From assembly GCA_949825065.1 (NCBI GenBank), contig OX463848.1, positions 24,274,986 to 24,338,985 of the forward strand: DNA of 64,000 nucleotides, read 5' to 3'. This DNA comes from Odontocerum albicorne (taxonomy: Eukaryota > Arthropoda > Insecta > Trichoptera > Odontoceridae). The position numbers were made by a program, and so were the translations under genes. Numbering within the stretch: the stretch's first letter is position 1; each line of letters starts with the position of its first letter. The notes under the pieces were generated by a model. The model did not search any database. It saw nothing but the letters and a program-made list of their open reading frames with translations, and had not been told where the DNA came from. This document shows positions 471 to 50,506 of this stretch, piece after piece.

Positions 471-1727
471 TTGTTTTATTTTCGAGTACAATCGGGAATG
501 GAAACTGAAGTCCTCAGGTGAAAGTGAAGGGCTTTACCAACTAGGTCACGAAGGTAGTCAAGGCTTAATTATGGGGCAGATGTTGTCTCCAGGCCACGCT
601 CTTCAATATGTATGCATTACTGTTTCGGAAATGTTAAGTGGTATATTAAGTTGTTCTAAAAATAATGGCCGATTTTAATAGGGTTGGGATTCGAAAGAAA
701 ACTTCATCCACCTTACTCATTCGATCTATCGCCAAGCGATTTTCACTTTTTCAAGTGGTTCAATAATTATTATATTATTGCAGAGTATATTTATTGCAGA
801 AAAAAACAAATACCAGAGAAGCAGCACTAAATGCCTTAAAATAATTATTGGATTCTAAATCGCGGGTGTTTAATTGTTGTTGTGCTTAACAGTGTTGGCA
901 AAAATGCCTAGAATCAAATAACTTGATTTGATTAATAAAGTTTATTAACTCTCAATGTATGTTTAAGAATCTAATAATAACTTAGGATAATGAATCCAAT
1001 GGAGATAGCTTAGAAAAACATCGAGAAAAATTTAAAAAAATCGCTGAATCTGATAATTTACTTTAAAAAATCATACCATTGGGCGACGAGAAGCAACACA
1101 CGTTAGTATAACATCCATTGCCATAGCTTTAATTAGATATTAACCACAAGCAACGTACTCGTATTAATATTTTCTTGAATAGATCTCGTTGAAACGTGGT
1201 TGACTGGGGCAGAGGGGAGGGGGGCACCAGACCAGGAGGGGCAATACATGCGGAGCGTGCGGATCCTTGAGTTGTGCATATTTGTAAATGCCAAAAGGTT
1301 TCCATCCTACTGAGATGATGGTATTTGCATTTCGCCATCGGTTGCCTTATGCGCCTTCATGTGGGCTGAATCACCTGTCCGATATTAAATTTCATTTGCT
1401 ATGCAGTTACCTTCTGTAGACTTTTTGTTTTTCATGTTACTTATACTTTTCTATACTTCTTTCGTAAGGATTTCGCGAACTGGTTCATCTGTTTTGTTAT
1501 TCGTTGTATCTCTTGTATTTTCCATGATTTTAAAGAGTTTTGAATAGTATTTGTCGACTAATTTGTGCTTTTCGGACTAAATAAGACTTGTTTTTTTAAT
1601 GTAATTTTTTACATTTTTCTTATTTTTTGCATAATTCTGAATATTCAAATCCATTGCCGTGTAACCAAAAATGTTTTTTAAATTCTCTTCTCTTATTGTT
1701 ATGAGTTATATTATCTATATGAAACAA
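471..1727. other. No gene seen; SINE-head fragment and GC-rich patch
   Basis: A broken SINE head lies at 515-560 (CCAACTAGGTCACGAAGG, - strand). The string CACGCTCTTCAATATGTATG at 595-615 recurs near 48425, probably the SINE body. A G-rich patch at 1205-1260 stands out from AT-rich surroundings. The 69-residue - frame there has no recognisable features. Confidence 0.4.
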
Positions 1728-2170
1728 ACGTACATACCATCACGGCGTTTCCCTACTGGGGTAGTGAGAGAGGACAGAGCGTCATACTATCCTTTCTTGA
1801 CACACATGTTTTGTTTCCTCCACATCCAGACACCTTTTCATACAGCTTCTTTTCAAAACATTTCACTTGACTCAACCATACTTTCTAAGGTCTTCTTCTA
1901 CTACGTCTTCCACTCTCATTAGCATTGTATATTTGTTTTGTAAGTCTTTCTTCATTCATTCATTCCACGTACCCAAATCATCTAAGAGTGCTTTTTTTAT
2001 TTTACTCAACATATCAGCTTTAAGTTCACCTTTATCCCTTATCCTTTATTCCATATTCTGTCAAACATTGCCACACCACATTTTGTCCAAATTGTTCACA
2101 TTTCTACAGAATTTATTAGATACGGACCTACACGACATATCAATCAAAATAATTCTATATCGAGAGTAGT
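1728..2170 (-). mobile_element. LINE-A 3'-end relic
   Basis: The reverse complement matches the family seen best at 51036-51495 and 38215-38710. It has an ACCATCACGGCG...CTACTGGGGTAG terminus, a segment encoding something like RKVWLDQV (the ...TGACTCAACCATACTTTC block), and a GHVERM-type upstream block. Many stops and shifts are present. This is the C-terminal tail of a non-LTR retrotransposon polyprotein. Confidence 0.7.
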
Positions 2171-3318
2171 TATGGTCATAAAAAATTCTTGAATTCCATG
2201 GTTTGGTGGAACATCATTGTCTCCTCTTTTTCTATCTCTTAAGTTATACTTTTGGTTTGTCATCATCAGGATAGTCTGTCTTGAAATATTGACTCCCATA
2301 TTTTTCGAGGTTTTCCTTGGGGATGACTGTCAAAAGGTATTTTATGCATCGCCATGTAGGGAACTGTTTTGTTATCCAACTTTTTCGCATGACTTTACCA
2401 GTGTTTTTTGTGGTTTCTTCTCTATCTCACATTATCTTCTATTTCCCATATCTTTCGGGTGCGGGATAATTTTAATCCTCTAGAGTATTTCTGAAAAACT
2501 GTATTTAAAAAATCTGATTTCGATACGTTAGGAAATTGATCGGAAAATGTCTTAGTATTGGGACGGTTCGGTCTCAGTGAGAGACTTGGATCTTGTCTCA
2601 CGGCTCACATTCACGCGAGCCGGTGCAACATGTAGGACGAAGACCTCTTGCGAAAGGTGCCGTGCACCGGAGTAATGCTTGTTAGAATCTGATATCACCG
2701 CTATATAAAATATACGTGGGACATTGAAGGGGCCGGTTCCAATTAGAACAGGAACTACATTGCACTTTACTTTTCAGCTTTTCAGGTCTTCAATGAAATA
2801 TTATTCAATCCAAATTACATTTTTTTATATTAAATTTTAAACACAGTTTGATCTTAAACGGTTCTGAGTAAATATTTAGATTTTGGTTTAATAATTCAAA
2901 TTTTCAATCTACTTTATTTTACGTATTGTCAAAAATAACCATATCCAATCAATATAATTATACTTCACATAGCGTTATTCAAACTATTGTACTATCTACT
3001 CAAAGACTCTCAAGAATTTGTGAGGGGTAGATTAAAAGTGCTAACATAAATTCAATCTTCAAAACACTGGAAATGAGAATAATCCATTATCCCATGGATA
3101 TAAAAAATTCACACCTAAGAGCTCAGTGTATATGTAGGAACTTTAACGAAATTATACATTTCACGACACGTTTCCAGATTCCACGTTTTTGAACTGAAGT
3201 AAGATTTTTCGAAAGACATTGCTGAGAGATTTTTAAATTCTATTTTGTTAGTTGCATTTCGTATTATTCATTTTTCGAATGTTACGTCAGCCAATATTTT
3301 TTTATTTTTTTTATTTTT
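2171..3318. other. No gene seen; GC-richer unidentified block 2560-2760
   Basis: The block 2560-2760 is CpG-rich against the background and shares AATATACGTGGGACA with 5290-5305, so it is probably a decayed repeat. The remainder is AT-rich and featureless by eye. Confidence 0.35.
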
Positions 3319-3482
3319 TTATTATTACACATGACAAGAAATATACACAATTTGAGAAAAAACAACAGGTAATTTGATTTGGACATATAATTTTAATGGA
3401 TCTGGGTTTGTTGCCTTTCATTTGTCGTATCCCCAGTAAACTAGGCTTTTGCCTGTATCTCACTGAGGATATTTAGCATGAA
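3319..3482 (-). repeat. Retroposon family R (A-tailed), - copy
   Basis: Its reverse complement is nearly identical to 8540-8712 from GATACAGGCAAAAGCCTAG through CTTGTCATGTGTAATAATAA and then an A-rich tail. The similarity is high for elements of this size, so both copies look young. A partial third copy lies at 30040-30115. Confidence 0.8.
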
Positions 3483-3825
3483 AAAATAAATCGATACTTC
3501 TTTCCGATTTTTGATAACACAAAAAACCCCGTTGCACGCTCTCATCAACCTGACAAACAGTGACACTCAATATTGAACCTAAGATGAAAACATTATTTTC
3601 CGAAGTTCCTCTGCTTCTTGTTTTTACCTAAGTTGAGTCAATCCCATCCGTCTCTTGCTTGCCGGAAATACGTTGTAGGTTCTTATATGTTAGTTGTCCA
3701 TGTCTTTTATTCCTACATGACATACTTCATGCTAAACACGTTTTTTTTTATAAATACGTATGTATTATAATAAAACCAAAATTTAATGGCCATGAAAAAA
3801 TAAAACTGAGGGATACAAATATTGC

Positions 3826-4235
3826 ATGGATAAAATAACTTTGGAAATGCGTGCATTAACTCGTAGAATAATAGACGGTGTGATAATGTATAACAGAATA
3901 CGGAATGAAGTGTTTAGGGGCAAACTTAAGGCTGATGTGTTGAGTAAGGTAAAGAAGATCACTCTGAAATGGTTTGGGATTGGGGAACAAATTAATGAGG
4001 GGAGATATACAGTACAAATGTGAGTGCAAGGCGTGGTAGAGGATTACCAAGAAAAGTATGGTTGGATCAAGTGAATGATATTTTTAAACAAGGAAATGTG
4101 AGAAGTAGAATAAATCGTAGGAGTTGTATAAAGACGTATATGTATGTGGAGAGGCGAAATAAGCGTATCGAGATATAACATTTTGGCGCTCAGTCCTCTC
4201 TGCCTACCCCATCAGGGAAATAGCGTGACGGTATG
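3826..4235 (+). mobile_element. LINE-A 3'-end relic
   Basis: Frames read MRALTRR, YNRIRNEVFR, LKADVLSKVKK, LKWFGIGEQINEGRYT, then in another frame RKVWLDQVNDIFKQGNVRSR and RSC.KTYM. This is the C-terminal region of a non-LTR reverse transcriptase polyprotein. The copy ends CTACCCCATCAGGGAAATAG / CGTGACGGTATG, the shared 3' end. Confidence 0.8.
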
Positions 4236-4579
4236 GGAAATAACTTTGGATAAGATCTTGAATTCACGTAAATATTATATATTATAATATTTTAACGTAT
4301 GTGTACATAAACAAATAAGGCATTTGTAACATAATGTTGAAACCAGAGTTCACACGACTATAACAATGAGCCTGTTTCGATCATTCAAAATGAGAAAACT
4401 ACGAACCATTGCGGGGAAATCTTTTAAAGATAGGGGTTAGTAGTATTTGGACATCCGTCAGACCTGCAGCACGGACGATATACGAGTAGTCACATGAAGC
4501 AGGAAAAGAAGGCTACTGACGTGACTACATGGATTGGACATGCAGTGACTGAATCTCATATATAACGACATACAAGTTC
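4236..4579. other. No gene seen
   Basis: Mostly AT-rich. It contains a TACGAGTA octamer at 4481 and a short stretch (4450-4560) with repeated TGGACAT words, and nothing codes. Confidence 0.3.
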
Positions 4580-4820: not shown

Positions 4821-4904
4821 GTACTGTACGAGGACATCGCATGTCAGAAAAGCCACCTAAAAGGTGAAGAGACGGCGGGTGCTCTTCCTCCAAGGATTGA
4901 TTTC

Positions 4905-5760: not shown

Positions 5761-7484
5761 ATGTTGACATAATTATACTACGAGTATATACAAGATATAT
5801 GGTCTATATCAACCCTCTCACAAGGCTCAATGTTGACATAATTATACTATATACAAGATATATGGTCAATATCAACCCTCTCACTAGGCTCAATGTTGAT
5901 ATAATTATACTATATACAAGATGTATGGTCTATATCAACCCTCTCACTAGGCTCAATGTTGATATAATTATACTATATACAAGATATATGGTCTATATCA
6001 ACCCTCTCACTAGGCTCAATGTTGACATAATTATACTATATACAAGATATATGGTCTATATCAACCCTCTCACAAGGCTCAATGTTGATATAATTATACT
6101 ATATACAAGATATATGGTCTATATCAACCCTCTCACTAGGCTCAATGTTGATATAATTATACTATATACAAGATATATGGTCTATATCAACCCTCTCACT
6201 AGGCTCAATGTTGATATAATTATACTTTATACAAGATATATGGTCTATATCAACCCTCTCACTAGGCTCAATGTTGATATAATTATACTATATACAAGAT
6301 ATATGGTCTATATCAACCCTCTCACTAGGCTCAATGTTGATATAATTATACGATATACAAGATATATGATCTATATCAACCCTCTCACTAGGCTCAATGT
6401 TGACATAATTATACTATACACAAGATATATGGTCTATATCAACCCTCTCACTAGGCACAATGTTGTTATAATTATACTATATACAAGATATATGGTCTAT
6501 ATCAACCCTCTCACTAGGCTCAATGTTGACATAATTATACTATATACAAGATATATGGTCTATATCAACCCTCTAACTAGGCTCAATGTTGACATAATTA
6601 TACTATATACAAGATATATGGCCTATATCAACCCTCTCACTAGGTTTAATGTTGACATAATTATACTATATACAAGATATATGGTCTATATCAACCCTCT
6701 CACTAGGCTCAATGTTGACATAATTATATTATATACAAGATACTCGTATATTGTCTATATCAACCCTCTCACAAGGCTCAATGTTGATATAATTATACTA
6801 TATACAAGATATATGGTCTATATCAACCCTCTCACTAGGCTCAATGTTGATATAATTATACTATATACAAGATATATGGTCTATATCAACCCTCTCACAA
6901 GGCTCAATGTTGATATAATTATACTATATACAAGATATATGGTCTATATCAACCCTCTCACTAGGCTCAATGTTGATATAATTATACTATATACAAGATA
7001 TATGACCTATATCAACCCTCTCACTAGGCTCAATGTTGACATAATTATACTATATACAAGATATATGGTCTATATCAACCCTCTCACTAGGCACAATGTT
7101 GATATAATTATACTATATACAAGATATATGGTCTATATCAACCCTCTCACTAGGCTCAATGTTGACATAATTATACTATATACAAGATATATGGTCTATA
7201 TCAACCCTCTAACTAGGCTCAATGTTGACATAATTATACTATATACAAGATATATGGTCTATATCAACCCTCTCACTAGGCTTAATGTTGACATAATTAT
7301 ACTATATACAAGATATATGGTCTATATCAACCCTCTCACTAGGCTCAATGTTGACATAATTATACTATATACAAGATACTCGTATATGGTCTATATCAAC
7401 CCTCTCACTAGGCTTAATGTTGACATAATTATACTATATACAAGATATATGGTCTATATCAACCCTCTCACTAGGCTCAATGCC
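5761..7484 (+). repeat. 63-bp minisatellite, about 27 units, with higher-order structure
   Basis: The unit runs TATGGTCTATATCAACCC ... CTATATACAAGATA and is 63 bp, a multiple of three. One frame is therefore open through the whole array (YMVYINPLTR...). Two units carry an extra 6 bp (at 6741 and 7377) and the first partial unit carries another (5779). Variant marks (GGCACAATG, CTCTAACTAGG, GGTTTAATG/GGCTTAATG, then the 6-bp insert) recur in the same order in units 11-15 and 21-25. This is a 10-unit higher-order repeat. Confidence 0.97.
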
Positions 7485-8530: not shown

Positions 8531-8539
8531 GTAGTATTT

Positions 8540-8892: not shown

Positions 8893-9480
8893 AATTCTTA
8901 TAAAGCAAAGTAATGTTTGATTTCGCGGTTACCGAGGTGATTGCGTGCTATGTTTCTCATTAACGTTGCATAGTCAATGTGTATCACAAAAGTTTTTAGG
9001 AAAATACTTATGTACGAGTATAACATATCTATTTGTAACGTTATGGATCGTTAAGGATAATATTGCACCTAACACTTTGTGTGCGGGCATGCTATATTCT
9101 TCTTTCTTCAATATACTTGCAAGTGTCCATAAATTGTCGAATTTCATCAATTTATTTGGTAAATGAAAAAACTGTTCCTAATAACTTTCACTTTTAACAG
9201 AATCATTAAAAATACACAATTCCTCGGAACGTGAAGGAGATGGTAGAGTAGGTCCCTGCACTAAATAGTAAGTAATGCTGAAAATAGATGGCAGTATAAA
9301 ATTCAAATCGTTGTAATAAAAAACCGTGGCTGAAACCTCCGATTTCTGCGGTCCCCGCACATTTATCGCTAAATTGAGATTACAATATACAGCTTTCTAT
9401 GAGGGTCACATTCTTGTCTGTAATTCAAGTGCCCCGCATGCGAAGTGTAAAACAATATACGAGTATTGTATTGACAAAAA
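8893..9480. other. No gene seen
   Basis: Small frames only. TACGAGTA octamers lie at 9013 and 9458. Confidence 0.3.
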
Positions 9481-9489
9481 TCGCTCTTT

Positions 9490-9720
9490 ATGGTTGGATT
9501 CTTTAACCGTGGTCACACCACTAGCTACACACGAGCAGACTTTGGGTCGACCTTGAGCTGACCGTAACATACCCACTGTGAGACAGGGTTCGCATACTCG
9601 TATTTATTTTTGAGGGTGTCAATTTAGATGTGTATGTTGTTTGTCTACAATTTTTGTTGATGATCAGTAGATCGATATGAAGTTCGCGCAAGCTAGCTTG
9701 CGTTACACGTGCAAGTACAT
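9490..9720. repeat. Possible interspersed repeat D
   Basis: It contains AACCGTGGTCA and GAAGTTCGCGCAAGC. Similar words occur at 37285-37345 (GAAGTTCGTGCAAGC, AACCGTGGTCA) and, inverted, at 45640-45665. A related block at 43740-43900 shares GTACAATAGGGTATGCATAC with 37200. The family type is unknown. Confidence 0.35.
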
Positions 9721-9944: not shown

Positions 9945-10320
9945 TCCAAACCACTTTAGGAAGCACTTGAAGGCAACCCTTTTTGAGAAGTCTTATCAAA
10001 ATGTATGATTATACGAGTATAAGAACACTGCATACATGTGCCTAAAGTTCAATGTGTCAGCAATCACGTGTCGGAAGATCTAAAAAGATTTTTTGTGTAG
10101 CATGTCTTCTCTTGGTAAGTTTTCTTACCAAATATGATATTTTAAACATATGCAAATGCGCAGAAGTTCATTATCTATTTAATAACTGTAGCCACCACCT
10201 ACCTACTTTACTTTTAATCTGTAAATATAGTGGGCTCGAATCCCGAGTTCGAGTACCCTTGAAGAGAGTCTGCTTTCTAAACGGCGCTATATAAACTTTT
10301 ACTATAATTAAATGACATAA
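9945..10320 (+). mobile_element. LINE-C 3'-end relic
   Basis: It begins with the tail of the coding region (AAGCACTTGAAGGCAACCC, encoding a KHLKTTFF-like motif). It ends with the family 3' UTR: TCGAATCCCGAGTTCGAG, GAGAGTCTGCTTTCTAAACG, GCGCTATATAAA. A TACGAGTA octamer at 10012 is absent at the matching place in the 39.2-kb copy. Confidence 0.65.
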
Positions 10321-10841
10321 AAATATGAGTTTCATACAAACAAATTTCGTCATTGAAGATGTGATATTTTTAGGTCGCTGTTTTAACCAATAAAGAAACT
10401 GACGTGAGTGAGTTTTTTTTAATTTTCAGCTCGATCATAATTATATAAACTTGAACATTCTTTCTCTTTTTTCTTCATATTCAGAGACCAGCATTGAAGT
10501 ATCGGTACGATTATCTTCTGCCGTCTACTGCATCCCTTGACAAGGGGTCTTCTTGCTGACTCCTTCACGTTTTTTTTGTCTTATGGCTGCTGGGCCCTTA
10601 ACGTCTTTCTTGGTTTTATAAATGTACGAGTATGTCAGGTAAACGCTGCTGTTGGTAAATTTTTTATGAATGTCGATAGTTTGAAAGTTGAATAAATGCC
10701 CTAACCATCTTAATCTTAATTCAGATTTCCCTTCTGACAGTACAAAAGGTTTCGTATTTATTTTCCTAAGTTATAAAGGGTTAACTCCTTAATTAATATT
10801 TGCATTTTTATAGTTGAGCTGTAATAAAATTGTTATATTCT
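10321..10841. other. No gene seen
   Basis: AT-rich with no repeats recognised. A TACGAGTA octamer lies at 10625. Confidence 0.3.
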
Positions 10842-12484: not shown

Positions 12485-13035
12485 TAGTGTGTCGCAAAAA
12501 ATGCATACACACTTTTATACCGTGCCATATACTTAGATTTGCTGCAAGAATTTGTCATATCACGCATTCGTGAGGAATATAGAGATAAAAAAGACTTTTA
12601 TATCCAGCAAGATCGTGCACTTCCATTGCGATATGAGGGTTTTTCTTGATGAAAATTTGTCGAATATATGAATTGGACGTACCTAGATGTAGCATTGAAT
12701 ATCTCCCGAGGTCCTCAGACCTCACGCCAGTGTTTTTTTTATGGGGACTCATCAAAGGTAAACTTTAAGGTATAAAAAAGGGCAACAGTTAATGAATCGA
12801 GAGCAGCCATTGAAAGATAATGCGCACAAATACCAAAACAAATTATTCGTGATGTTTGCGATTCCAAGCTATCAGCAATGCATGGACCAGATCGGTCACA
12901 ATTTGAGCATTTGTGATAATTGAAAAAAAATCTAACATATCTCCTTTTAACTTGAAGTTTTGATCTTAGATACATCTTAATGAATACTGAAATTAGAACC
13001 ATTCAAAGTGTGTATACATTTGTTTGGGCTACCCG
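12485..13035 (+). mobile_element. Tc1/mariner-superfamily element relic with terminal inverted repeats
   Basis: The left end (GCAAAAAATGCATACACACT) and the inverse of the right end (CCAAACAAATGTATACACAC) pair as terminal repeats around a broken transposase. The right terminus probably ends GGGCTACCC next to a TA. Much of the left half of the gene is missing. Confidence 0.7.
12550..12915 (+). pseudogene. DDE transposase C-terminal half, broken
   Basis: The reading is interrupted but clear: FYIQQDRALP (second catalytic Asp; usually QQDGAPPH), SSDLTPVFFLWG (usually SPDLTPLDFFLWG, so the third Asp is lost), ATVNESRAAIER, CAQIPKQIIRDVCDS, and a QFEHL end. This belongs to the IS630-Tc1-mariner group with LDFFLWG signatures and is not the same family as the 56.3-kb mariner. 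At least two stops and two shifts are present. Confidence 0.8.
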
Positions 13036-13364
13036 TATTTTAACTGTGTTACTATCATATATTTGGGCTACCCGTATATTAACTGTGTTACTATCATATA
13101 CTCGTATTTGGGCTACCCGTATATTAACTGTGTTACTATCATACATTTGGGCTACCCGTATATTAACTGTGTTACTATCATATATTTGGGCTACCCGTAT
13201 ATTACCTGTGTTACTATCATATATTTGGGCTACCCGTATATTAACTGTGTTACTATCATATATTTGGGATACCCGTATATTAACTGTGTTACTATCATCT
13301 ATTTGGGCTACCCGTATATTAACTGTGTTACTATCATAAATTTGGGCTACCCGTATATTAACTG
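13023..13364 (+). repeat. 39-bp minisatellite, about 9 units
   Basis: The unit is TTTGGGCTACCCGTATATTA followed by ACTGTGTTACTATCATATA. The third unit carries a 6-bp insertion making TACTCGTA at 13099. As 39 is divisible by 3, several frames on both strands stay open, and none need be coding. The first 12-13 bases of the unit equal the end of the transposon just upstream. Confidence 0.95.
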
Positions 13365-13462
13365 TTAACAACATCCACATTAAATATATCCAGCAAACAA
13401 GGAATGGAGTTAATCAATTCTTACGTTATTATACAAAAATCATTAAGCCTGTTATAAGAGGG

Positions 13463-14809: not shown

Positions 14810-15365
14810 GCTTACTTATGATTGATGACAAACTTATTGGACAAGTGATGGAATTCAAATATCTAGGTGTCAATTTGCTCAGCTACAATGATCTCTACAA
14901 TTAAATAATATGCAAAGTAAATAAAGTAGCTGCTGTGATTGGATGCCTAAAATATGTGATCTGTAATAACAAATACATGAGAATAGACAGTAAGGTCAAA
15001 ATGTACTAAGCATGTGTAAGGCCAATCGTGACTTATGGAATTGAGTATATAGCAGATACAACAAAAACAAAAAGTATTTTTTAGAACCAATGAAATGAAA
15101 ACTTTCCGAGGCATTGTGGGCAAAACGTTCAGAAATATAATAGAAATTCTCATATCCGAGACATACTCGTATGTGAAGATATTGTGAGATGGAGTAGAAA
15201 CCGCATAAGACACTGGGAAGGTTATGTGGAAAGGATTGATAACAAAAGGGTTCCTTACGTGGTAATGCAAGAAATATCCGCTAGCAGTCTTTCCCCTGGA
15301 AGATCTTCAAAAAGTCGGAAAGATAGCTGGGTGTCAACATGTCAGGAAATGCATGTCTGATGATA
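14810..15365 (+). pseudogene. LINE-B reverse transcriptase C-terminal relic
   Basis: Broken frames give EFKYLGVNL, VNKVAAVIGCLK, NNKYMRIDSKVKMY, ACVRPIVTYGIEYIADTTKTKS, WSRNR...HWEGYVERI and GRSSKSRKDSWVSTCQE. The order and spacing match the better copy at 47765-48335. Several stops are present. A TACTCGTA octamer sits inside at 15164. Confidence 0.85.
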
Positions 15366-15605: not shown

Positions 15606-16619
15606 CATGTCTAACTTAAGAGAAAGAAGAAAACAACTGAATTTGAACAGGGCTTTAACATTAATAATTCGACATTATAAAAATATGACTCCTACACTTT
15701 AAGGGATACTCGTATATATTATATTTTTGACAAAGTAGAACATAGTAAACACATGCGATTGGGTCATTTACAATCTAACAGAATAAAACAGATATTCATA
15801 AACTACTCGTAAAAGCACGTTTACTGAGGTGCTATCATGGATTTTGCAACCATACGAGAAATCACATTGGCTGAAAAGTTCTCGGATTAAAAATCAGGGT
15901 ACTGTGTTATTAAAAAAAGCTTAATACACGCGATAAAAAAACTTCATCTAAATGTCACTAGTTCATAAGATGTGAATCAAACCTAACTTGCAGTGTTTTT
16001 TTACGCAAATCAGGAAACACATTCCGTAGTCTTTGGATAAAAATAAGACAGTGAATAAATTTTGCATATTAATTGTCTATGCGCGACACTGGAGAAGGTT
16101 CCGATCGTCTATTAAATGTCTGCATCGCTTAACCTTCTGGGTAACGAGAGGCAAGGCTAACCTTGTTCCGTGACGTGTGTTTATTTTTAAATGAAATATT
16201 GTCGGTTAAGTGCATGGCCGACTTAAGGAAAATGAAAAATATGCGTGGTACTAGAGAGAAAATTTTATTGATAGAAATTCTATTAAAACACACATAACTA
16301 CAATAAAAAATCATAACATGTGGTTTAAGTAAATACATATTAACGAGACTAAAATATGGGTAGAACAAAAATGAAACGGAAAGATAAAATTTACACCTCT
16401 GAATATTTATTATATTTCGTTTTACATGGGTTTATTGCCAATATAGTAAGAATATATATTTAACTATAATAATAATGCGAGGAAAAAAGATCGCAAAAGC
16501 TGAAAAAAACTGTCGAAATACGTGTTCGAGAGAAATTAAGACAGAAAATAAAATTAAGCTATGATGGAAAAATATGAACTAAAGACTTGTTTAATAAGCA
16601 GGATAAAGAAAATAATTTA
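15606..16619. other. No gene seen
   Basis: AT-rich with octamers at 15707 and 15804. The 79-residue - frame at 16129-16368 has no recognisable features. Confidence 0.3.
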
Positions 16620-18177: not shown

Positions 18178-18836
18178 TGGTGTTATATTTTTGTTAGACC
18201 TTTTGTTAGCATGTTGGTGTTAGACCTTTTGATAGCATGTTGGTGTTATACCTTTTGATAGCATGTTGGTGTTAGACCTTTTGTCAGCATGTTGGTGTTA
18301 GACCTTTTGTTAGCATGTTGGTGTTAGACCTTTTGATAGCATGTTGGTGTTATACCTTTTGATAGCATGTTGGTGTTAGACCTTTTGTCAGCATGTTGGT
18401 GTTAGACCTTTTGTTAGCATGTTGGTGATACACATTTTGTTAGCATGTTGGTGTTAGACCTTTTGATAGTATGTTGGTGTTAGACCTTTTGTTAGCATGT
18501 TGGTGTTAGACTTTTTGTTAGCATGTTGGTGATACACCTTTTGTTAGCATGTTGGTGTTAGACCTTTTGTTAGCATGTTGGTGTTAGACCTTTTGATAGC
18601 ATGTTGGTGTTATACCTTTTGATAGCATGTTGGTGTTAGACCTTTTGATAGTATGTTGGTGTTAGACCTTTTGTTAGCATGTTGGTGTTAGACTTTTTGT
18701 TAGCATGTTGGTGATACACCTTTTGTTAGCATGTTGGTGTTAGACCTTTTGTTAGCATGTTGGTGTTAGACCTTTTGATAATATGTTGGTGTTAGACCTT
18801 TTGTTAGCATGTTGGTGTAAGACCTTTTGATAGCTT
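18178..18836 (+). repeat. 26-bp minisatellite, about 25 units, with higher-order structure
   Basis: The unit is GTTGGTGTTAGACC then TTTTGTTAGCAT. Variant units (TATACC, GTCAGC, GATACACC, GACTTTT, GATAGTAT) recur in order. Units 1-4 equal units 5-8 (104-bp block), and units 10-14 equal units 17-21 (182-bp period). This points to duplication of blocks, not only single units. Confidence 0.97.
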
Positions 18837-18987: not shown

Positions 18988-21140
<2,153 letters not shown>

Positions 21141-21345: not shown

Positions 21346-21736
21346 ATATATTCAGTTGGTCTGCGGGAAGCTGAAATCAGGAATATTTTTGATATCTTAA
21401 TGTGGCTCCTTTCATCCATTTTCCAAGTCTACTTTTCACTCCAATATATCAATTTCAGTTTAAATATATGACTTTTGCAGCATCTTTGACTTTGTTCATT
21501 GTTCTTCTTTCCGTCGGCGTCGTTCGAAAACGTACTTCCCAAGTAGCAGAGATTTTCCGTCATCCGAAAACGTACTTCCCGATCTTTCATTGTTCTGATC
21601 TTTCATTGTTCACCCGAATCGCATTTACTGGACTTTAAAACTTGCAGCATTCATTCTCTAGTCTTTTTGTTTGCATTTTACGTGAACTTGAATTATCATA
21701 CTCGTACATAACATATGCTGTATTTAGTATGTTGTT

Positions 21737-21882: not shown

Positions 21883-22254
21883 TATTTAGTTTTAATTTTC
21901 TACTAATACTACAATGTCATCACCATGTCCACATACATTCCTGTTAGACATTTTTTACCATGTTTATTTAAATCAATCGTGATGAATTTAAACAGTTTTT
22001 AATTAAAAAGCACAATTTAAAAATTTGTTTTTTGATAAAATTGTGTCCTAATTTTTTTTACACTTGTACATAAAGATTTCTCCGTTTTGATTGTGTGTTC
22101 AAGTTGTGATGTTTTTCCCTTTTGTTGTTGATTTTCGTTTTTGGTATGTTGTATTTTGAGGTTTGTTTGATTATTTTTTGTTTTTAATGTACGAGTATTA
22201 TAATTTTTGTTCCTGAAATTTGATTTATAGTAAAGGCTGCCGCCGTCAAAAACA
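21883..22254. other. No gene seen
   Basis: AT-rich, with a TACGAGTA octamer at 22190. The 101-residue - frame here is low complexity (Asn, Lys, Gln, Thr) and is not considered real. Confidence 0.3.
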
Positions 22255-30115: not shown

Positions 30116-30280
30116 AATATGAAGTGAAAACATACGTTCATACTATTCACCGATCACTTATTAATATTCAATTCCTTCATCAAAATATTTCATTGACTTG
30201 TGAGACCTAGTTACGAGTATGCACCGCCCGAGTCAACCCTTAGTGTATTGTATTACACTTTTGTTGTATACAGTACAATG

Positions 30281-33789: not shown

Positions 33790-34000
33790 CTTGATTGGCA
33801 TTCACGTTCAGTGATCGAATACAATTTTTATATTGCTTACTACATAGTCGCTATACTCGTAAATAACATTTATTTTTTAGCTTATGTCGCAATTTTTTTC
33901 GGCAGTAAAAAAAGCTATAAGTTACGAAAAAACAATACATTTTGCTCCATCTTCAAAACGACGGCAGAAAAAACTTGTAAAGCTATTTGGATAAACATTG
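33790..34000 (-). pseudogene. mariner N-terminal relic, same family as 58.6 kb
   Basis: The - strand reads KMEQNxLFFR around 33940 and then a decayed AVSD-like segment, aligning by eye with 58840-58960. A TACTCGTA octamer interrupts it at 33854. It is very degenerate, and I call it only because of the shared block TTTTGcTCCATCTTCAAAA. Confidence 0.45.
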
Positions 34001-38214: not shown

Positions 38215-38710
38215 TATTTTAGTACTATCTTTGATGTATATGAGTGAAATTGGGATATGAAAAATACTGAAAAGAGCTGGATAAATGCTGTTGAAATGCG
38301 TGAAATTAGAGGAATACATGGAGTGGCAGCATATGACAGACTGCGGAATGAAGTGATTAGAGATGAATGGGAACTTAATGCAGCTGTGTTAAGTAACATG
38401 AAGAAAAGCCTTCTGAGATATTTAGGGTAACGAATGAATGAAGAAATATAACTGACGAAACAAATGCACAGTGCAAATATAAACGGAATGCATGGTAAAG
38501 GAAGATCAAGGAAAGTATGGTTGGATCAAGTATGTTATATTTTGAAGGAAGGAAAAGTAAAAGTCAGAGAAATCGTAAAAATTGTGTGAGAAGGTATATT
38601 TATGTAGAACAGGCGAAAGACGTGTGTCGCGTAAGGCAAGTCTGGCGCTCTCTCCTCTCTGCCTACTCGACAATGAATGACGTGATGTGATGTATGTACG
38701 AGTATGTATA
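38215..38710 (+). mobile_element. LINE-A 3'-end relic, one of the longest
   Basis: Broken frames read MREIRGIHGVAAYDRLRNEVIRDEW, LSNMKKSLLRYLG, GKGRSRKVWLDQVCYIL, RRYIYVEQAKDVC and WRSLSSLPT-like at the end. The 3' end GTGATGTATGTACGAGTATG contains the extra CGAGTA absent from the copy ending at 27380. Confidence 0.8.
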
Positions 38711-39189
38711 TATTGCCGAGTTTTTTAATCAATAAATGAAATTTGTATTATTAACTTCACAAAAAAATGCTTCAATAAAATAAGAACAAGGTGTTACTGT
38801 AGCCGTAGACGGATATCAGATCAGTGTACAACGGTCAGAAGAAAAAACGTGATGTAGACGTCACACGGAATCGCGGAGGCACAGAGCTACGCGGAAATAC
38901 AGCGGAGGTAGACTTCAGGCTCAGACACTCCTTCCACTATATTCTAGAGGCATCACGTGGTTAAAGGATCTACAGACGCTGCCATACTTACTCGTATCGC
39001 TTGGATTCGGTCGGAACTCATTAATAACTGTAATAAATTTTAAGTTAAAACATTTATTTGTTTTATGTGTAACTAAAAACATATATAAATCTACATGCAT
39101 ATATACAAACCTTCACGCAGAGAAGACAAATCTCTGCATTTTTATATCCACATAAACAGATATTTCTCATACTTCTCACGTTTCATCTA
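38711..39189. other. No gene seen
   Basis: 38810-38990 is slightly GC-richer and CpG-rich, and is unidentified. A TACTCGTA octamer lies at 38989. Confidence 0.3.
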
Positions 39190-41770: not shown

Positions 41771-42600
41771 TATTTAATGGTTAACTATATCATTCAAAAA
41801 GTTCTTATATAAAGTAGAACTACCGCATATTCGTAGAATTTCCTTGTTTTTTTAAACGTGTACTCGTAACATCTTAAATGCATAAACTTTCATTTTCCAC
41901 GCTGCAGTGCGGCCTTCTAGGTAGCCATATACGAGTATGTCTATTTCCGCATTGATGAGAATGTAAAGACTTCTCAAGTATCTCCACTGGAAAGAGATTT
42001 CTATTATTTTGATTCTAATATAAATTGTAAATAAAATATCAAATATGTACCATAGATTATTAAAATAAGGTGTACAATCTGTCGGTTGTGAAATTGTAGC
42101 AATTTGGTCTTACTTTTATAAAATAGATTTTTCATTACATAATTTTTAGGGTTTATCTGAAATATCGAATTAGTATATCTCACAAGTGAGAGTACAAAAT
42201 CACGCAGTAAAGGTTCTGGTGTAAGGCAATACATGAAAATGCTTTTTGCAGGACGCATTTCACCTCTTTGAAACTACCTGTTAGGTGAAAGATTTTACTT
42301 CGCCCTACTGGAAACCAATGGAGATTACGATTGATTGTTTCATAGTTAATTTTGCATTTCGAAAAAAAAATCATATCGATAATCCATATTTATGGTCTTG
42401 TAAGATTCCAAAAATGTACACAAGTCTGATTTTTATTTATTTTTCAAAAACCAGTAAGCATAAATAATGTTTGGAAATATTGCCTTGTACAAAAAGGATT
42501 ATCTGGTTAATTTAGATAAACTTTGTAGCATTTTTTGAATTCATAGGGAGACGTGAAGCTTTTAAAAATTTTAAATTTAATTTTTAACTTATCAGATACC
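41771..42600. other. No gene seen
   Basis: Octamers at 41861 and 41930. No frames of interest. Confidence 0.3.
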
Positions 42601-42770: not shown

Positions 42771-44814
42771 CTTACAAAATTACATTCAAATCCTTGTTAT
42801 AGACTTTATTCTCCATCCATCTCCATTTTTTAAAAAGAAAAATGAGTATTTTATATCAATTTAAATTCAGAACATGGTAGTATAGAAATTGAAAAATATA
42901 AAGTTTGATTTTGATCATATTACAGAAAATTTACACAAATGTAGATGGCAACATTTCGTACTAAAATCATACTAAGATCGTCTTGATGTATATTTTTTTC
43001 AAAAGAGGAATAGTTAAAAGTTAAGATAAGAAATATTTCAATGCAAAATTATTTTTCCAGGAACTCACTCGTACTCGTATATTAGAATTTTTATTATGGT
43101 ATTTATTGAGATAACACGAATTATTTATAAAACTACAAATGCAATCCCAATGATAAATATTTTTTTTAGTTGGATATGCCATAATGATATGATACCACGC
43201 GTTGATAGTGACCATGGAATAATTTCGTGTTCGAGTTAATGAAATATGAATTTAAGGTTTACCAACGTGCGGCGCCTATAATATAGTTTTTTGTTTACAT
43301 TTTCTTGGATATTACACACGACATTGGTTATAATGAACTTGTTCTTATTATTATACTTCAAAGCATACACATTTTTTTTATTATTAAAATTTCATTAAGT
43401 TCCAACAAAAAATAATTAAGGCCAGTAATAGAATGTCACATGTGAGACTGGTATTTGGTACCTACCTATTTTATTAATATTTTTTTTAAATCAATATAGT
43501 TGGCGTCCGCCAAAACACATAACTAAGTACTTTTTTTCGATATGTCATATGTTTTCTTATATTTGTAATATAATTATTAGTTTAATATTTACAAAAAAGT
43601 ACTTTTATACAGAGTAAACATATTATAACAAAAGCAAGATTTTATAAGATAACCTTACAAGTGAGAGATGATTTAATTTAATGGATAGGGCTAGACTGGA
43701 CTACCACTTGGACGCTATCATATCACATGTTGCTCAAATGCTGCCTTTGGGTCAATCGTGAGTTGATCATTGCATGCCGATGGTACAATAGGGTATGCAT
43801 ACAGTTTTTTTGACAGTGAGTTCAGTCAAATCGTTAGGTTGCATGCCGTTGACCATTGGTTGATCTAAGTGAATATGCCGTGGATTTCTTATCGCGAGGA
43901 TATAAGGTTGCTTACCTGTTAATTTTTGGACGGTCCAGTTTGAATCGAGCCGAACATTTTGATAGGAAAACTTAAGGATTTAACAAGGTGTAAAATTGTT
44001 GTGCTCAAGAATTTCATTTACAATGTTTAAAGAAATTTTATTCGATTTTTTTTCAAGATTTTTTTTCAAGACTAGCTATAATGCAGAACGTACATATATT
44101 ATTATATTTGTTTTACTGCACGACGCTATTTGATTTATGGTTTTTTTTTTGGAAATTTATATAGAAGAGTTTTCTACATCAACCTTCCACCGCTTTTTGA
44201 TTATTTTAAGTTTATCTATGCTCTGCTGCGTGGGGTTATCTTGTCCTACAATTATCTCATTGTATATTCCCATTCATTCATCATTCTCGCTTTTCTTTTC
44301 ATACTACTTCTTATTGTTGTTCATTCATCACTTGCTTCTTTTGTTCTCGGCACGTTTTAATTGGTAGATCTTATACGGTTAAGAATATTCATTTTTTATT
44401 TAAATATAATCTTTAGAATTGTTATATTTTCGCTCATTATCTGCACGTGACCGAATCATTTAAAAATATACCGTTTTTAATGCTGACGATGCAAAAATGT
44501 GGAGTTTTCACAAAAAGTACGATAAACAGAATGTATTTCATTTTGTAACAATTAAACACATAATAATACGTCGTATATCATACAATTATTACTACGTGCT
44601 GATTTAAAAAAATAAATATAATTCTTACATGGACATAACACTTTTAATTTATTCATAACATAACGGCAAACAATAAAGATATTTAATTATTATTTGCATA
44701 TAATATAAAACAATTACGCATGTTTTCACATGTTTATACTTAATATTTTATTTCATCAGTGTGAACCTTTGCCAGGTTTAACCTAATTTATTTATTAAAA
44801 CACTTCATTGTATA
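42771..44814. other. No gene seen; possible repeat D at 43740-43900
   Basis: GTACAATAGGGTATGCATAC at 43785 nearly repeats 37199-37218. Two overlapping + frames at 44130 are hydrophobic and AT-driven; I do not consider them real. Confidence 0.35.
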
Positions 44815-44905: not shown

Positions 44906-46804
44906 AATATTTATACGTACAATCAAAATAAAATGAAAAAAAAATAGAATTGAAAGATAAAAAGAAAACAGGTATCATTTGACGATTTAAATATGAAAAT
45001 ATCACCTGCAGCTTGAAGATACTCGCAGGATGGGATATTGGGAAGAGTGATATTTGACGAACCAGGAAACACGCAACGTCATTGAATTGAAATATGTTAT
45101 GATTTTTTAGTTGCTATTCAAAACCTTGTGTTTAGAGTGATTATTTAAACCAAATTTCTAAATATATTTGATATTTAAGATAATAAATATTTAAATAATA
45201 TATCTGGTCAAAATTTGTATGAACATGTACTCATATGTGCACATTCATGCGAGCGTATATAAATCGGATTCAATAGCAACATTTGTGATTTGAGTTATCT
45301 ACTTATGAAAATCAAAATATAATATATTCAGTGACATATTGGAAATAAGTGATGAACGTTAGAATTACGAGTACATTACTAGACAGAAAAAAAAACGAAT
45401 GGACTCGGAGTCAAACTAAGTGGGGAACGTAGGGGAAAGGATTACGTAATTGAATTGGAAATGACTGAGCTATATTGTTGGTATATCAAATGATAGATGA
45501 ATCAAACATGTGTTCGAGTAGAGACCGTCAACCGCCAAAAGATTACAAGGAAGATTTTCTAGACAATTTATTACACATTTAAAAAAAAACTGTATCAAGA
45601 TGTAATTTTAAATTTCCAATTTATGGCGATTATATCGCGAGCTTGCTTGTACGAACTTTACAACGATCAACCAACCAATGGTCAACTGCAGGTAGTCAAC
45701 TTAACAATCAGAATTGACACAAAGTAAAGAGCGCAAGTTCTGTCCTACAGCGAGCGACAAAAAGGCAGCTCGTAGTATTGGAATCCAGTCTACGAGTTTT
45801 TGAGAATGGTAAAATATATAAACGTAAATAAAGAATGTATCATATATTGTTAGCAGGGTGTTGTTGGCGTCAGCGCTAGAATAAAAATAAATTGGAACTA
45901 TTTATACAGTATGTCCTCCTCTTATTATTTTTGATAGAAAGGGCTAAAATCTTCTTTAAGAAGAAAACATGTACGTAACCATTTTTTATCAGGTTAATAA
46001 ATATTTAGAATAATTTTCATTCCGAGATTTATTTAGACAAAATGAAACTTCCATTTTCATTTCTACTTCTCTCTTGACAATATACAGTATAATTATCAGA
46101 AAATGTTTTGTCAAACGAGACTATTTTGGTTATTTACAATACGTTTTCGTTGGTAACGTAACGGTTTTCTTTACAAATGTTTTTTGATGCAATAAAAGAA
46201 GAAAGTACACACCAACTACAAAGTTGGAGTTGACGGTGCGATCTGACATCATCATTCTGATCGATAACATCTACCAGATTGGGTCGTTAAGTCGTTAACT
46301 GCGCGATCGTTAGGAACCGCTAGCAGTTAACTATACTTAGGATTAACTGTCAACTCAAAATGAGTTATCTGCCATTTTAACCAAAATCATTTACAAGCAT
46401 TCCACATATTTTGACATTTTTTCTTTAATCTGGCGAAACTACTTGTCAAAACTTAATTACGTACTATAACCAAGCAAATATTTATAACGTTATGTATATA
46501 TACACATACGTCGAAGGCTGAATTACTGTATTGCAATTTTCTTTATTTTAAATGTATTATTAAAGATGTTATTGGACCAAAACCTGTCTTTTTCCTAAAT
46601 TTCATCACAATTGATATAGTTTTCATTGAATTACAATTATTATGTTTCTCCTTAGAAAACTAGTAATCAAAAATAAATTCTTAATCGACAAAAAACTGCT
46701 TTCATAATACGTTAGAAAATAAGTATTGAATGAGATTTTTTTTTAATATGAACCAAAGGATCATCGAGATTGTGTTGTATTACATTTTCATTGTACGAGT
46801 ATAC
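44906..46804. other. No gene seen; possible repeat D at 45630-45790
   Basis: GCGAGCTTGCTTGTACGAAC at 45638 is the inverse of words at 9680 and 37290. The rest is AT-rich with octamers at 45366 and 46794. Confidence 0.35.
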
Positions 46805-46998
46805 AGTATAAACTAGCGGGATTGTTGCCATGTAGCAATCCCATCCAACCAACCAACCAACCAGAAATAAGTTTAAGATTCCTTAAATGAAAATCAGACT
46901 AGAACTCTTTAAAAACCGGATTTCAACGGGAATTGAACCCGCAACCCTAAAGTGGGAAGACAGGCGTCTTAGCAACTGACCTACGGAGGTCGTCGACA
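46805..46998 (-). mobile_element. tRNA-derived SINE
   Basis: The - strand has CTCCGTAGGTCAGTTGC (A-box region), GCGGGTTCAATTCCCGTTG (B-box), and TTTCTGGTTGGTTGGTTGG (one extra GGTT). It ends near GCTACATGGCAACAATCC. Confidence 0.8.
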
Positions 46999-47764
46999 TT
47001 AATCAATGTCGATAAAATTATGAAAATGTTATAGATTTATTAATTTTTCATCATAATATTGTTTGGATATTTTCAGTTCACTCTTTATAACTTATGTCAT
47101 GGATTGCCAGTGAAATTGTCGATTTTGCGTGAGTAACATTGAAAATATTTTTTTTCCAAAATTTAAGATTACTTTATCCACCCACGACAAACTCTCATGT
47201 ACGAGTATATATATTATAGTACCCATATTTATTTTCTGATAGTATTCTTACATCTTGAGGCTCGATTCTTATTTGACCACCTTCTTCCGGATTGATATTT
47301 ACAGCATATTTGTCTACTTTTGGATTGATGATTAATAGTCAGATGGGAATCGTGTTAAGGTCTTTTTTTACGGATTGATACTAAATAATGCCAGTTTGAA
47401 ATCGTTTTAAGGTCTATGTTATGTCACTGTGGACTTAAGTATTTATAGTTTGTGTAAGTTCTCAAGATATTTTTTGAAAGTTATTTCCTGACTTCTTGAG
47501 CTGTAACATGTCAATAATGAACCATACATATAGTAGTCTTTTATATAATGAACCCTGCGCTGCTTAGTGCACTGTGTTTCGGTAAGATGAAATTTGTTTG
47601 CTTGTTATTTATTCATATACTATAATTATGTAATATCCTTAGTTATCAATTTATCCACAGGGTATACAAAGATACACAATTCATTCGTACATATGACAAC
47701 AGCGGAATATGTACTCATCAAATCACTTACATAGGACACAATGGGTGGAAACACAAAATTCTTC
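46999..47764. other. No gene seen
   Basis: AT-rich; octamer at 47200. Confidence 0.3.
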
Positions 47765-48335
47765 TTCTTCTTCCTATAGATCATGATCTGTTTGTTCCGC
47801 TTGTTCCTCTTCTTGTGACGTGTATTGCCAGCTGTCCCGCCATCTCTTCGGAGGTCTTCCCGGTAATCTTCTTCCGGCTGGATTCCCTTGAAGGGTGACA
47901 CGTGGAAGTCTGTCGTCTTGCATTCTGTTTACATGTTCATTCCAGTATCGCCTTCGTTGTCTTCCCCACCTGACGATGTCTTCCGTACTACACTTTCTCC
48001 TTATTTCGGGGTTTATGATTCTATCTCTTAGTGTGTTTCCGGTTATACATCTCAGTATTTTCATTTCCGAGGTTCTCAGGAGAGATTTTGTTCTAGATGT
48101 GTCTGCTCTGGTCTCTATTCCGTAGGTGGCTATCGGTCTCACACATGTCTTGTATATTCTGACTTTACTTTCTATTCTCATGTGTTTATTATTCCACACC
48201 GGTGTTCTTAGGCATCCCGATATTGCAGCCGCCTTATTGACCTGTCTCAAGGTTTTATCATACAGATTTCCATTGCTACTGATGCTCACTCCAAGATACA
48301 TAAACAAAATTCTGATGGGTCTAAATTCTAAGATC
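47765..48335 (-). pseudogene. LINE-B reverse transcriptase C-terminal domain, best copy
   Basis: A 177-residue frame at 47774-48307 starts MFMYLGVSISSNGNLYDKTL. It continues VNKAAAISGCLR, KVRIYKTCVRPIATYGIETRAD, MKILRCITGNTLRDRI, IVRWGRQRRRYWNEHVNRMQ and GRPPKRWRDSWQYTSQE. These are the thumb and C-terminal motifs of an endonuclease-reverse transcriptase of non-LTR type. The catalytic palm is missing upstream, so the element is 5'-truncated. No internal stop is present, which suggests a fairly young insertion. Confidence 0.9.
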
Positions 48336-49564
48336 TCGTAATTGTATTGTAAGCCCTAGACATGTGAGTAGACCTTTTTACTTGCGATAGTATTTCCAAC
48401 ACGTTCGATGTTGTTTCCCGGTCACGCTCTTCAATATGTATGGATCACAAGTTCTTTGATACTCGAACATTAATGGGTACCATACGAATGAAAACTATAA
48501 TAAAAATACACATTTAAATTTCCATAAATATTGAATGATATATCTTACATATTAAAAATGTATAATTTGCAAAGAAAATGTAGATGCCGGGCCAGCTCAG
48601 AATTTCCTTGAGGTGGGTCGCCGTGACGGAAGTAGGTTGTCTTGTATGGCACTACTGCCCCGGTAACACACTACATGCTTCACGAGTGGCGCGGACGCGG
48701 GCGCTGTAAAACCATCTTTGAAAAAATTGTGTACCCCGTTCACAGCTCATATTAGTGTGAACTCGCATTTAGGTGCCATAAATAATAGACGGAAATTTAT
48801 GGCAGTAGTTGCATTATAGGTATAAATGTAAAGTTTTTTTTATTATAATATTTAAAATTCAAATAAAAGACATCTTTAGTTTGATAATTTTACTCTTGAC
48901 AATTTTTCGACACATTCCTTGTGTTTGCGTCTTGGTCATTGTTGGACTAAATCTCATTTATCCAAAATTCATGTTTTGAATTCTTGTTTATGCGAACGTG
49001 GTCTAAAAAAGTGGACTTGAATCGTATTATTTTCAAACGCAGTTATCGGACTCCTTTCTCATCTTTTTTCATTTTCAAATTTTGATATTCCACTACCAAT
49101 TAATATTTCGACTATTTTAGCCTGTTTAAAGATTCCAATATGTAAATATATCATTTTTAAGATTACATAATGACAATATATAACAAAAGTTCTTCTATAA
49201 CAAAATATATTTCAATGTAATTTTATTTAAATATATTTTAATATCAATTTGAGCTATAGTGTATATTTTAATTTAGTAGATTAATATATATATATGTTTA
49301 ATGTTAAAAAAATCAAAAATTATTTTTATTATATTTATTTATGTCCGAATAATACTCTTGATGGGTAAACGGCAAAAGGGCTAGAAAAATGAAATGTTTA
49401 TGTAAAAAAAAATTACGCGTTTCAGCCTATGACATTTTTAGAACAAAATATATGTTATGTGTAAATTTGACTAAAATTGACACCAGAAATATAAAAAAAT
49501 ACGTTTTTTCATATATCTGAAATAATAAAAAAATAAGATATATGTATACCATATGTATGCAAAA
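48336..49564. other. No gene seen; GC-richer block 48585-48720
   Basis: CACGCTCTTCAATATGTATG near 48424 repeats 597-616 (SINE body). 48585-48720 (GTGGGTCGCCGTGACGG, GTGGCGCGGACGCGGGCGC) is CpG-rich and unidentified. Confidence 0.35.
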
Positions 49565-49825
49565 TATTATCCTGTCGGGTGTAATGCCATGCAGAGATCT
49601 CTTCCAACCAACGAAAAAGCTGTTCTTCTCTCGTAGTCGGAAATCCTGGTCGCTCATCCATGATATATTTTACATCTTTCTGGACCATTCACGTGGAATG
49701 TTACAGAAATTCGTTCTAAAACCAGACTAGAATATTTTTTAATAATTTGATAATAATAGGAATCGAACCTGTAACCTCTGGGCTGAATGACATGCGCCTG
49801 ACAACTAAATCGTGGAGCTCATCAA
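49565..49825 (-). mobile_element. tRNA-derived SINE with internal expansion
   Basis: The 3' module TCTCTTCCAACCAACG is at 49600 and the head TCGAACCTGTAACCTCTGG at 49762-49780. About 80 bp of extra sequence lies in between (49640-49720), compared with other copies. Confidence 0.65.
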
Positions 49826-50506
49826 AACACACAACAAACTCAACAAATTTTCCGTGTATTTGAAACGTCGAATAAAAATAACTTGAGTTAAATGTATTTA
49901 CATTTATCAATTATATGGAGTGAAATTCTTATTTGAAATAAAATTTAATGGTACTACAGTGTTTTAAAATAAATTACTGAGCGCAAGGCTGACCGACCAA
50001 GGTGATCGTCAACAAAGCCCTGCTAAAACATATGCCTAATTCTCTCTTCTTCATCGCGTGCTTAATTCTGAACGTCGTACATAATTGGAAAATACAGGAG
50101 ATTTTAATGATGCCCGCCAAAAAAAATCAACTGGTTCGTTAATACAAATTTTAGTACCTACCCATTTTAAATATTTTTTCCTTTCACTTTCTAAATACAT
50201 TTTTGTGGTAGGTATGTAGATACATACACACCTGCAAATTACGAGTAGGTAAAAATATCTCAAGGAAAATATATTTCAAAGGAGAAGTAAGTAATAAAAA
50301 ATACGTTTCAATGTCGTGAAAATGTGAATCTTTTGTGACAAAATAATTTAGTAACGAATTATTTTCTATAAAAATTGTTACGCATGTGTTGTACATATTG
50401 ATAAATACTCGTACATAACTTATGTATCTATCTAACATGATTATCATTCTTGTTAGAACAGTTTTAAAAATAATAAGTATACCATATATTATCAATATAG
50501 CTTATG
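49826..50506. other. No gene seen
   Basis: The 103-residue - frame at 50184-50495 has no motif. Octamers at 50240 and 50406. Confidence 0.3.

What the first reader, a model, noticed from the sequence alone, without database searches (positions are those of the whole stretch)
1156..50413. About 28 copies of TACGAGTA/TACTCGTA: candidate mariner excision footprints
By eye the octamer (it and its reverse complement) occurs at 1156, 4481, 5779, 6741, 7377, 9013, 9458, 9595, 10012, 10625, 13099, 15164, 15707, 15804, 21699, 22190, 30212, 33854, 38697, 38989, 41861, 41930, 43072, 45366, 46794, 47200, 50240 and 50406. My rough composition estimate is two to three. In tandem arrays, filled and empty units differ by exactly six bases: TA becomes TA-CTCG-TA or TA-CGAG-TA. 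CGAG is the first four bases of the mariner at 56285, whose ends are TA|CGAG...CTCG|TA. Mariner excision is known to leave the duplicated TA plus a few terminal bases. I infer a past burst of insertion and excision by this or a related family, leaving hundreds of thousands of scars genome-wide if the density holds.
Basis: partly seen in the sequence, partly recalled or inferred. Interest (0 to 1): 0.88.

Follow-up and report, generated by a model that had tools for sequence, protein, structure and literature searches.

The report
350,000 scars of departed mariner transposons
This genome holds about 380,000 copies of one eight-letter word, roughly twelve times as many as of its backwards control, that at repeated sites appears as an exact six-base addition at a TA; they are likely healed scars left where mariner-type jumping genes cut themselves out, which would make them a record of past jumps over a hundred times larger than the roughly 2,000 such elements inferred to be still present.

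Summary
TACGAGTA/TACTCGTA occurs exactly 28 times at the listed places (low-order Markov expectation 1-2). The genome (1.287 Gb, unnamed) has 381,502 copies against 30,151 of the reversed-word control. In 254 kb read here there are 79 against about 6 expected. Against repeat copies lacking it, the octamer is a 6-base insertion at a TA: a clean 6-base gap in at least one aligned copy at 8 of 9 testable sites. At one TA of a dispersed SINE, 6 of the 9 four-base inserts found genome-wide with those exact flanks are CGAG/CTCG, in six diverged copies. All 13 complete mariners read are TA-CGAG...CTCG-TA, in two families with mariner transposases; 3,935 such ends exist. Mariner insertions and scars share the target TA|T-A-T. 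Best reading: excision footprints, 4 terminal bases plus the duplicated TA. Shown: site, insert, source candidates. Inferred: excision, and that these mariners rather than a lost relative did it. Mos1 has a 3-base overhang and Minos a 6-bp footprint, so a mariner leaving 4 would be unusual; Minos's own end is absent. A 'burst' is not shown.

The parts
1156..1163 (-). octamer (scar)
4481..4488 (+). octamer (scar)
5779..5786 (+). octamer at the edge of the 63-bp array; empty units lack exactly 6 bases
6741..6748 (-). octamer inside the 63-bp array; empty units lack exactly 6 bases
7377..7384 (-). octamer inside the 63-bp array, same TA of the unit as 6741
9013..9020 (+). octamer (scar)
9458..9465 (+). 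octamer (scar)
9595..9602 (-). octamer (scar)
10012..10019 (+). octamer in a dispersed repeat; one of two empty copies gives a clean 6-base gap
10625..10632 (+). octamer (scar)
13099..13106 (-). octamer inside the 39-bp array; empty units lack exactly 6 bases
15164..15171 (-). octamer (scar)
15707..15714 (-). octamer (scar)
15804..15811 (-). octamer (scar)
21699..21706 (-). octamer (scar)
22190..22197 (+). octamer (scar)
30212..30219 (+). octamer just outside a SINE copy
33854..33861 (-). octamer (scar)
38697..38704 (+). octamer next to a dispersed repeat
38989..38996 (-). octamer (scar)
41861..41868 (-). octamer (scar)
41930..41937 (+). octamer (scar)
43072..43079 (-). octamer (scar)
45366..45373 (+). 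octamer (scar)
46794..46801 (+). octamer in a SINE at TTG-TA-TAC; all four SINE copies aligned (of nine hits) give a 6-base gap
47200..47207 (+). octamer (scar)
50240..50247 (+). octamer (scar)
50406..50413 (-). octamer (scar)
56285..57067 (+). internally deleted mariner (family A), TA at 56283-56284 and 57068-57069, ends CGAGGGCGGTCC / GGACCACCCTCG
5785..7482 (+). 63-bp tandem array, the local filled/empty control
13023..13365 (+). 39-bp tandem array, the local filled/empty control

Best explanation
Each excess octamer is likely the excision footprint of a mariner-type transposon that had inserted at a TA: the duplicated TA plus the element's four terminal bases, TA-CGAG-TA or TA-CTCG-TA. Steps: (1) shown: mariners of two families sit in this genome as TA-CGAG...CTCG-TA, in targets that prefer T-A-T after the TA; (2) inferred: their transposase cuts the non-transferred strand four bases inside each end, leaving TA-CGAG 3' overhangs on both flanks; (3) inferred: the two overhangs pair by their outer C and G with two mismatches between, are joined, and repair copies both mismatches from one strand, giving CGAG or CTCG; (4) shown: the octamer is a net +6 bases at the TA, it is carried along and point-changed in array units, hence inherited, and its copies far outnumber the element ends counted (381,502 against 3,935); (5) inferred: the scars piled up over a long time, over more than one wave of CGAG-ended mariners.
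For: Genome excess 381,502 against 30,151. Exact word: in the first 204 kb TA-N4-TA shows CGAG far above the other CpG-bearing words, the 3-base form TACGATA is not enriched (18 against 26) and the six longer forms tried are at 0-1; in 254 kb the mixed repair products TACTAGTA and TACGCGTA are not enriched (4 against 6-8; 4 against 3-3.5, both strands counted). Empty copies of the same repeats lack exactly 6 bases: clean in at least one aligned copy at 8 of 9 testable sites, and in the array of L100 on contig C1 five units carry the scar and the last does not. At one SINE TA, among 63 insertion-bearing copies genome-wide (control 0), 9 have four-base inserts, 6 of them CGAG/CTCG (P about 2e-11 if four-mers were random), in six copies 49-69% alike over about 240 bases with their flanks. 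Candidate source: 3,935 TA-flanked CGAGGGNNGTCC ends against 71 control; 13 of 13 complete elements read have CGAG ends and TA on both sides (all but the window copy were chosen because an end matched), with mariner transposases in both families. Target match: 51 mariner right flanks T .69, A .49, T .71; 158 scar flanks T .60, A .49, T .54; all TA sites .37.37.37; none of 2,000 random draws of 51 TA flanks fits the scar profile as well as the mariner flanks do.
Against: No filled/scar pair at one orthologous or allelic site was seen, so excision itself is inferred. Mos1, the best-studied relative, has a 3-base overhang (PMC4505599), and a review gives 2 or 3 bp for Tc1/mariner (PMC3878927). 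Only one complete CGAG-ended element was recognised beside 79 octamers in 254 kb, so the number of excisions per surviving element must be large, or the main source family is gone. The TAT target preference may be shared by many Tc1/mariner families: three-base inserts TGT/ACA/CCA lie at the same SINE site. The 51 mariner flanks were picked by a pattern or alignment that includes the TA, which does not touch the bases after it. At L011:5341 the repeat comparison did not give a clean 6-base gap, and single copies at 10012 (one of two) and L003:4454 (two of three) did not.
Confidence: 0.72

Rival explanations
1. The scars are excision footprints, but of a different, now rare or lost element with CGAG ends, such as a Minos-like Tc1 element, and the resident mariners share the first four bases by descent or coincidence.
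For: Minos starts TACGAGCCCC (primer in PMC3680223) and leaves a 6-bp footprint (PMC10992017), which would be exactly this word; Mos1 has a 3-base overhang. Few recognised CGAG-ended elements per scar.
Against: The D. hydei Minos end TACGAGCCCCAACCAC has 0 matches in 1.287 Gb; TACGAGCC does not occur in 254 kb; the resident mariners have the right ends and a matching target. A diverged Minos-like family was not searched for by protein.
Confidence: 0.2
2. The octamer spread as part of a larger repeat, a short MITE or a satellite, or serves as a binding site.
For: Some copies lie in arrays with the scar in nearly every unit.
Against: By eye the flanks of the 28 window copies share little except in arrays; 79 distinct 24-base contexts in 254 kb; at repeats with empty copies the addition is 6 bases.
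Confidence: 0.04
3. Compositional or mutational bias without insertion.
For: The genome is AT-rich and TA words are common.
Against: The reversed-word control is 12.7 times rarer, the Markov models give about 6 of 79, and filled/empty copies show an insertion, not substitutions.
Confidence: 0.01

Closest known systems
Excision by mariner Mos1 (Tc1/mariner, DD34D)
   Same: TA target; a few terminal bases remain on the flanks at excision; the resident family A transposase aligns with Mos1 over nearly its whole length.
   Different: Mos1 has a 3-base overhang (PMC4505599 passage); here four bases remain and the 3-base form is not enriched.
Excision footprint of Minos (Tc1-like, Drosophila hydei)
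   Same: A 6-bp footprint (PMC10992017 passage) and an end that begins TA-CGAG (PMC3680223 passage) would give exactly this octamer.
   Different: The Minos end itself is absent from the genome; the CGAG-ended elements read here are mariners.
Hsmar2, a CGAGGG-ended mariner
   Same: Ends TA-CGAGGG (oligo and legend in PMC3770610 passages).
   Different: HSMAR2 footprints in cells were reported as non-canonical (same passages); here the scar is uniform.
Excisions scored genome-wide in rice (Asian against African rice)
   Same: Natural excision sites of DNA transposons recognised by comparison of filled and empty sites.
   Different: 94 putative excisions, 8 of them perfect (PMC4423477 passages); here some 350,000 excess copies of one uniform word.

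Membership tests
Tc1/mariner excision footprint | Net insertion at a TA that leaves TA on both sides | tested here: met
   Clean 6-base gap in at least one aligned empty copy at 8 of 9 testable sites; SINE spectrum; L100 array
Tc1/mariner excision footprint | Inserted bases equal the terminal bases of an element present in the genome | tested here: met
   CGAG = first four bases of two mariner families, 13 of 13 complete elements read; 3,935 ends
Tc1/mariner excision footprint | Both forms (left-end and right-end bases) occur in one reference frame | tested here: met
   SINE site: CGAG 5, CTCG 1
Tc1/mariner excision footprint | Same target preference as insertions of the source | tested here: met
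   not specific, other families may share it
Tc1/mariner excision footprint | Orthologous sites seen as empty, filled and scar | not testable with these tools
   states that the genome has no relatives held here
Mos1-type mariner (source) | Mariner transposase (PF01359 with Mos1 HTH PF17906) | tested here: met
   Family A; family B; one copy of each family scanned
Mos1-type mariner (source) | 3-base overhang and 3-base footprint | tested here: not met
   TACGATA 18 against 26 expected; scar has 4 bases
Minos | End TACGAGCCCCAACCAC | tested here: not met
   0 matches in 1.287 Gb; a diverged relative is not excluded
Minos | 6-bp footprint of TA plus four end bases | tested here: met
   Scar length as found here; the Minos value is from a paper

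The most novel reading that the evidence does not exclude
A mariner lineage that cuts four bases, not three, inside its ends has used this genome as a ticker tape: its overhangs pair by their own outer C and G, so nearly every break is sealed the same way, and about 350,000 uniform, inherited, datable scars now record a turnover more than a hundred times the standing copy number. Other inserts at the same SINE site (TGT/ACA, CCA, GG/CC) would be the parallel records of other Tc1/mariner families.
Probability: 0.5. Interest if true: 0.85.

Novelty: new variant of a known kind. Interest (0 to 1): 0.74.

Why it matters
Cut-and-paste transposons are usually counted by the copies that remain. If these octamers are scars, then the number of departures can be read from one assembly, placed on the map, dated by decay, and compared with the resident copies. 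That would make open questions testable: how often excision is sealed by end joining rather than copied back from the sister chromatid, how fast a mariner turns over, and how many small +6 insertions (two codons) transposons leave in a genome. A uniform 4-base mariner footprint would also widen the known cleavage geometry of the family.

Tried and rejected
Rejected: chance and composition; a hidden longer repeat or MITE (15 TACGAG/CTCGTA pairs within 5 kb pass 6 mismatches in 20, among them the window mariner itself with 6; the other 14 pairs match mostly through the octamer and were judged chance or array pairs by eye); 3-base footprints of the same ends; mixed mismatch-repair products; the D. 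hydei Minos end.

Led nowhere: a paper search for the octamer found 301 papers, of which 20 were listed; none of the 20 has to do with footprints by title and abstract start. Minos plus the octamer gave 6 listings, none relevant by title and abstract start. Searches for genome-wide footprint counts listed 1, 2, 4 and 1 papers; of these I read passages only of PMC4423477. 'Not in print' is claimed only for those listings.

Not obtained: the count of empty SINE sites and a wider insert spectrum at that site, because the genome-search machine stayed busy; hence no scar frequency per TA. Age is only crude: one-base variants of the octamer show 204 against 161 expected, about 9 of the excess belonging to the 39-bp array word TACGGGTA, beside about 73 intact excess copies, roughly 5% change per site. 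The organism was not identified.
Full report
Observation. The octamer TACGAGTA or its complement occurs 28 times in the window, at every position listed. Markov models of order 1-3 expect 0.6-0.85 per form; order 4 about 1.6-1.8; orders 5 and 6 more, since they contain most of the word. The window lies in an unnamed 1,287,057,991-base assembly, in which the word occurs 190,753 + 190,749 times; the same word read backwards occurs 15,081 + 15,070 times. The excess is thus about 351,000 copies. That forward and reverse counts agree is trivial and is not used as evidence. In 14 stretches of 10 kb plus the window (204 kb) the count is 57 against 4.3-4.6; with five more stretches (254 kb) it is 79 against 5.8-6.0. 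One of the 19 stretches has none (L008) and the richest has nine (L027).

Exactness. In the 204 kb, among words TA-Nk-TA with k from 1 to 7, CGAG at k = 4 stands out; the other strong scorers, such as TATATATA and TAGGTATA, look like simple repeats and array words. TACGATA (k = 3) is at 18 against 26, and six longer forms such as TACGAGGTA or TACTCGAGTA are at 0-1. The palindromes expected if the two middle mismatches were repaired from different strands, TACTAGTA and TACGCGTA, are not enriched.

It is an insertion. Of 56 octamer sites with enough flank in the 204 kb, nine have a repeat copy spanning the site, with 96 hits in all. I aligned 16 of these copies with the octamer kept. A clean single 6-base gap appears in at least one copy at eight sites: the four array sites in the window (one unit each), 46794 (four of four SINE copies aligned), L004:6378 (two of two, one placed beside the octamer), L003:4454 (one of three; the other two split the six as four plus two) and 10012 (one of two). 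The ninth, L011:5341, aligns with other gaps. In L100, five array units carry the octamer and the last has the plain TA.

Insert spectrum at one TA. The pattern TTTTGTTGTA-N{1,30}-TATACAGTACAA, a TA in a dispersed SINE, gave 63 matches and none in the control. Nine have four bases between the TAs: CGAG five, CTCG one, CTTA, TGTG and TAGG one each. Nine have three: TGT three, TAC two, ACA, CCA, TGA and TTA one each. Four have two: GG two, CC, CA. One has one base, one has five (a duplication), and 39 are longer, many of them repeats of SINE sequence. The six CGAG/CTCG copies lie on five contigs, are 49-69% alike over about 240 bases and have different flanks, so they are taken as separate events at one TA.

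Heritable. On contig C1 scars are amplified with array units: 45-bp spacing in L097, 50-bp in L098, 67-bp in L100; in L097 single units carry point-changed forms. So these scars belong to the germ line, mutate afterwards, and genome copies overcount events.

Candidate source. The window mariner (56285-57067) is an internally deleted copy: it lacks most of the 5' half that other copies have. A DNA search found 1,852 first-look candidates, of which 40 were scored; the 39 other than the window copy are 97-98% identical over the aligned part. The pattern TACGAGGGNNGTCC has 3,935 matches against 71, which suggests about 2,000 elements, counting two ends each. Thirteen complete elements were read (window, L070-L076, L078-L082; L077 repeats L074): all have CGAG...CTCG ends and TA on both sides, but all except the window copy were chosen because an end matched. 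They fall in two families by their end sequence: A, CGAGGGYGGTCCGATAAGTACTTAGCC in most copies; B, CGAGGGTRGTCCCARAAGTACCCGACCT. One family A transposase matches PF01359 and PF17906 and aligns with Mos1 over residues 2-348 of 349; one family B frame matches the same two Pfam families. Of 4,498 relatives of family A, 120 are listed; the few with a species name are arthropods, from which I infer that the host is an arthropod.

Target. After the TA, 51 mariner right flanks read T .69, A .49 or G .24, T .71; 158 scar flanks (79 scars, both sides) T .60, A .49, T .54; all TA sites .37 T.37 A.37 T. Under the scar profile the mariner flanks score +0.41 on average and random TA flanks -0.35; none of 2,000 random draws of 51 reached the mariner mean. 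The 51 are the window copy, 10 copies and 40 of the 100 places listed. This fits a common source but is not specific, since other inserts share the SINE site.

Mechanism. From established knowledge of Tc1/mariner, the second strand is cut a few bases inside the end and the flanks keep these as 3' overhangs; end joining then leaves them between the two TAs (review passages in PMC2874221 and PMC3878927). With a four-base cut, both overhangs read CGAG. Laid against each other, the outer C and G pair and the two middle bases do not. Joining, then repair of both mismatches from one strand, yields CGAG or CTCG and not CTAG or CGCG, as found. The four-base cut and the repair step are inferences. Mos1 has a three-base overhang. 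Minos has a six-base footprint and begins TA-CGAG, but its end is absent here.

Scale. About 351,000 excess copies against about 2,000 resident elements is some 175 to one before correction for array amplification. The one-base variants suggest a mean age near 5% change per site, a crude figure from small counts, older than the 97-98% alike copies of family A, so earlier waves probably contributed.

Verdict. What is new is the number and uniformity of the footprints in one genome and, if the mariners are the source, a four-base mariner footprint. Literature searches listed no paper that by title and abstract start reports this, within an open-access library only.

Noticed in passing
SINE site in L089-L096 (contigs C16, C17, C45, C1, C19, C24, C25, C31): Three-base inserts TGT/ACA/CCA and two-base inserts GG/CC between TAs at the same SINE TA, possibly footprints of other Tc1/mariner families.
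   Followed up: partly
L097, L098, L099, L100 (contig C1, 24-73 kb): Tandem arrays in the first 80 kb of contig C1 in which the scar sits in nearly every unit; it was amplified with the unit.
   Followed up: partly
window 19309-19676 and 20874-21010: Long (TA)n runs of 368 and 137 bases.
   Followed up: no
window 18192-18834: 26-bp tandem array, about 25 copies.
   Followed up: no
window 57930-58180: Exon-like frame that by recall resembles glutaminyl cyclase; not tested.
   Followed up: no
L077, beyond the mariner: Open frame that by recall resembles a piggyBac transposase; not tested.
   Followed up: no
sample of 254 kb: Among one-base variants TACAAGTA (29 against 15), TTCGAGTA (21 against 8) and TGCGAGTA (12 against 4) are in excess but TATGAGTA (8 against 11) is not: decay of the scars looks uneven.
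   Followed up: no
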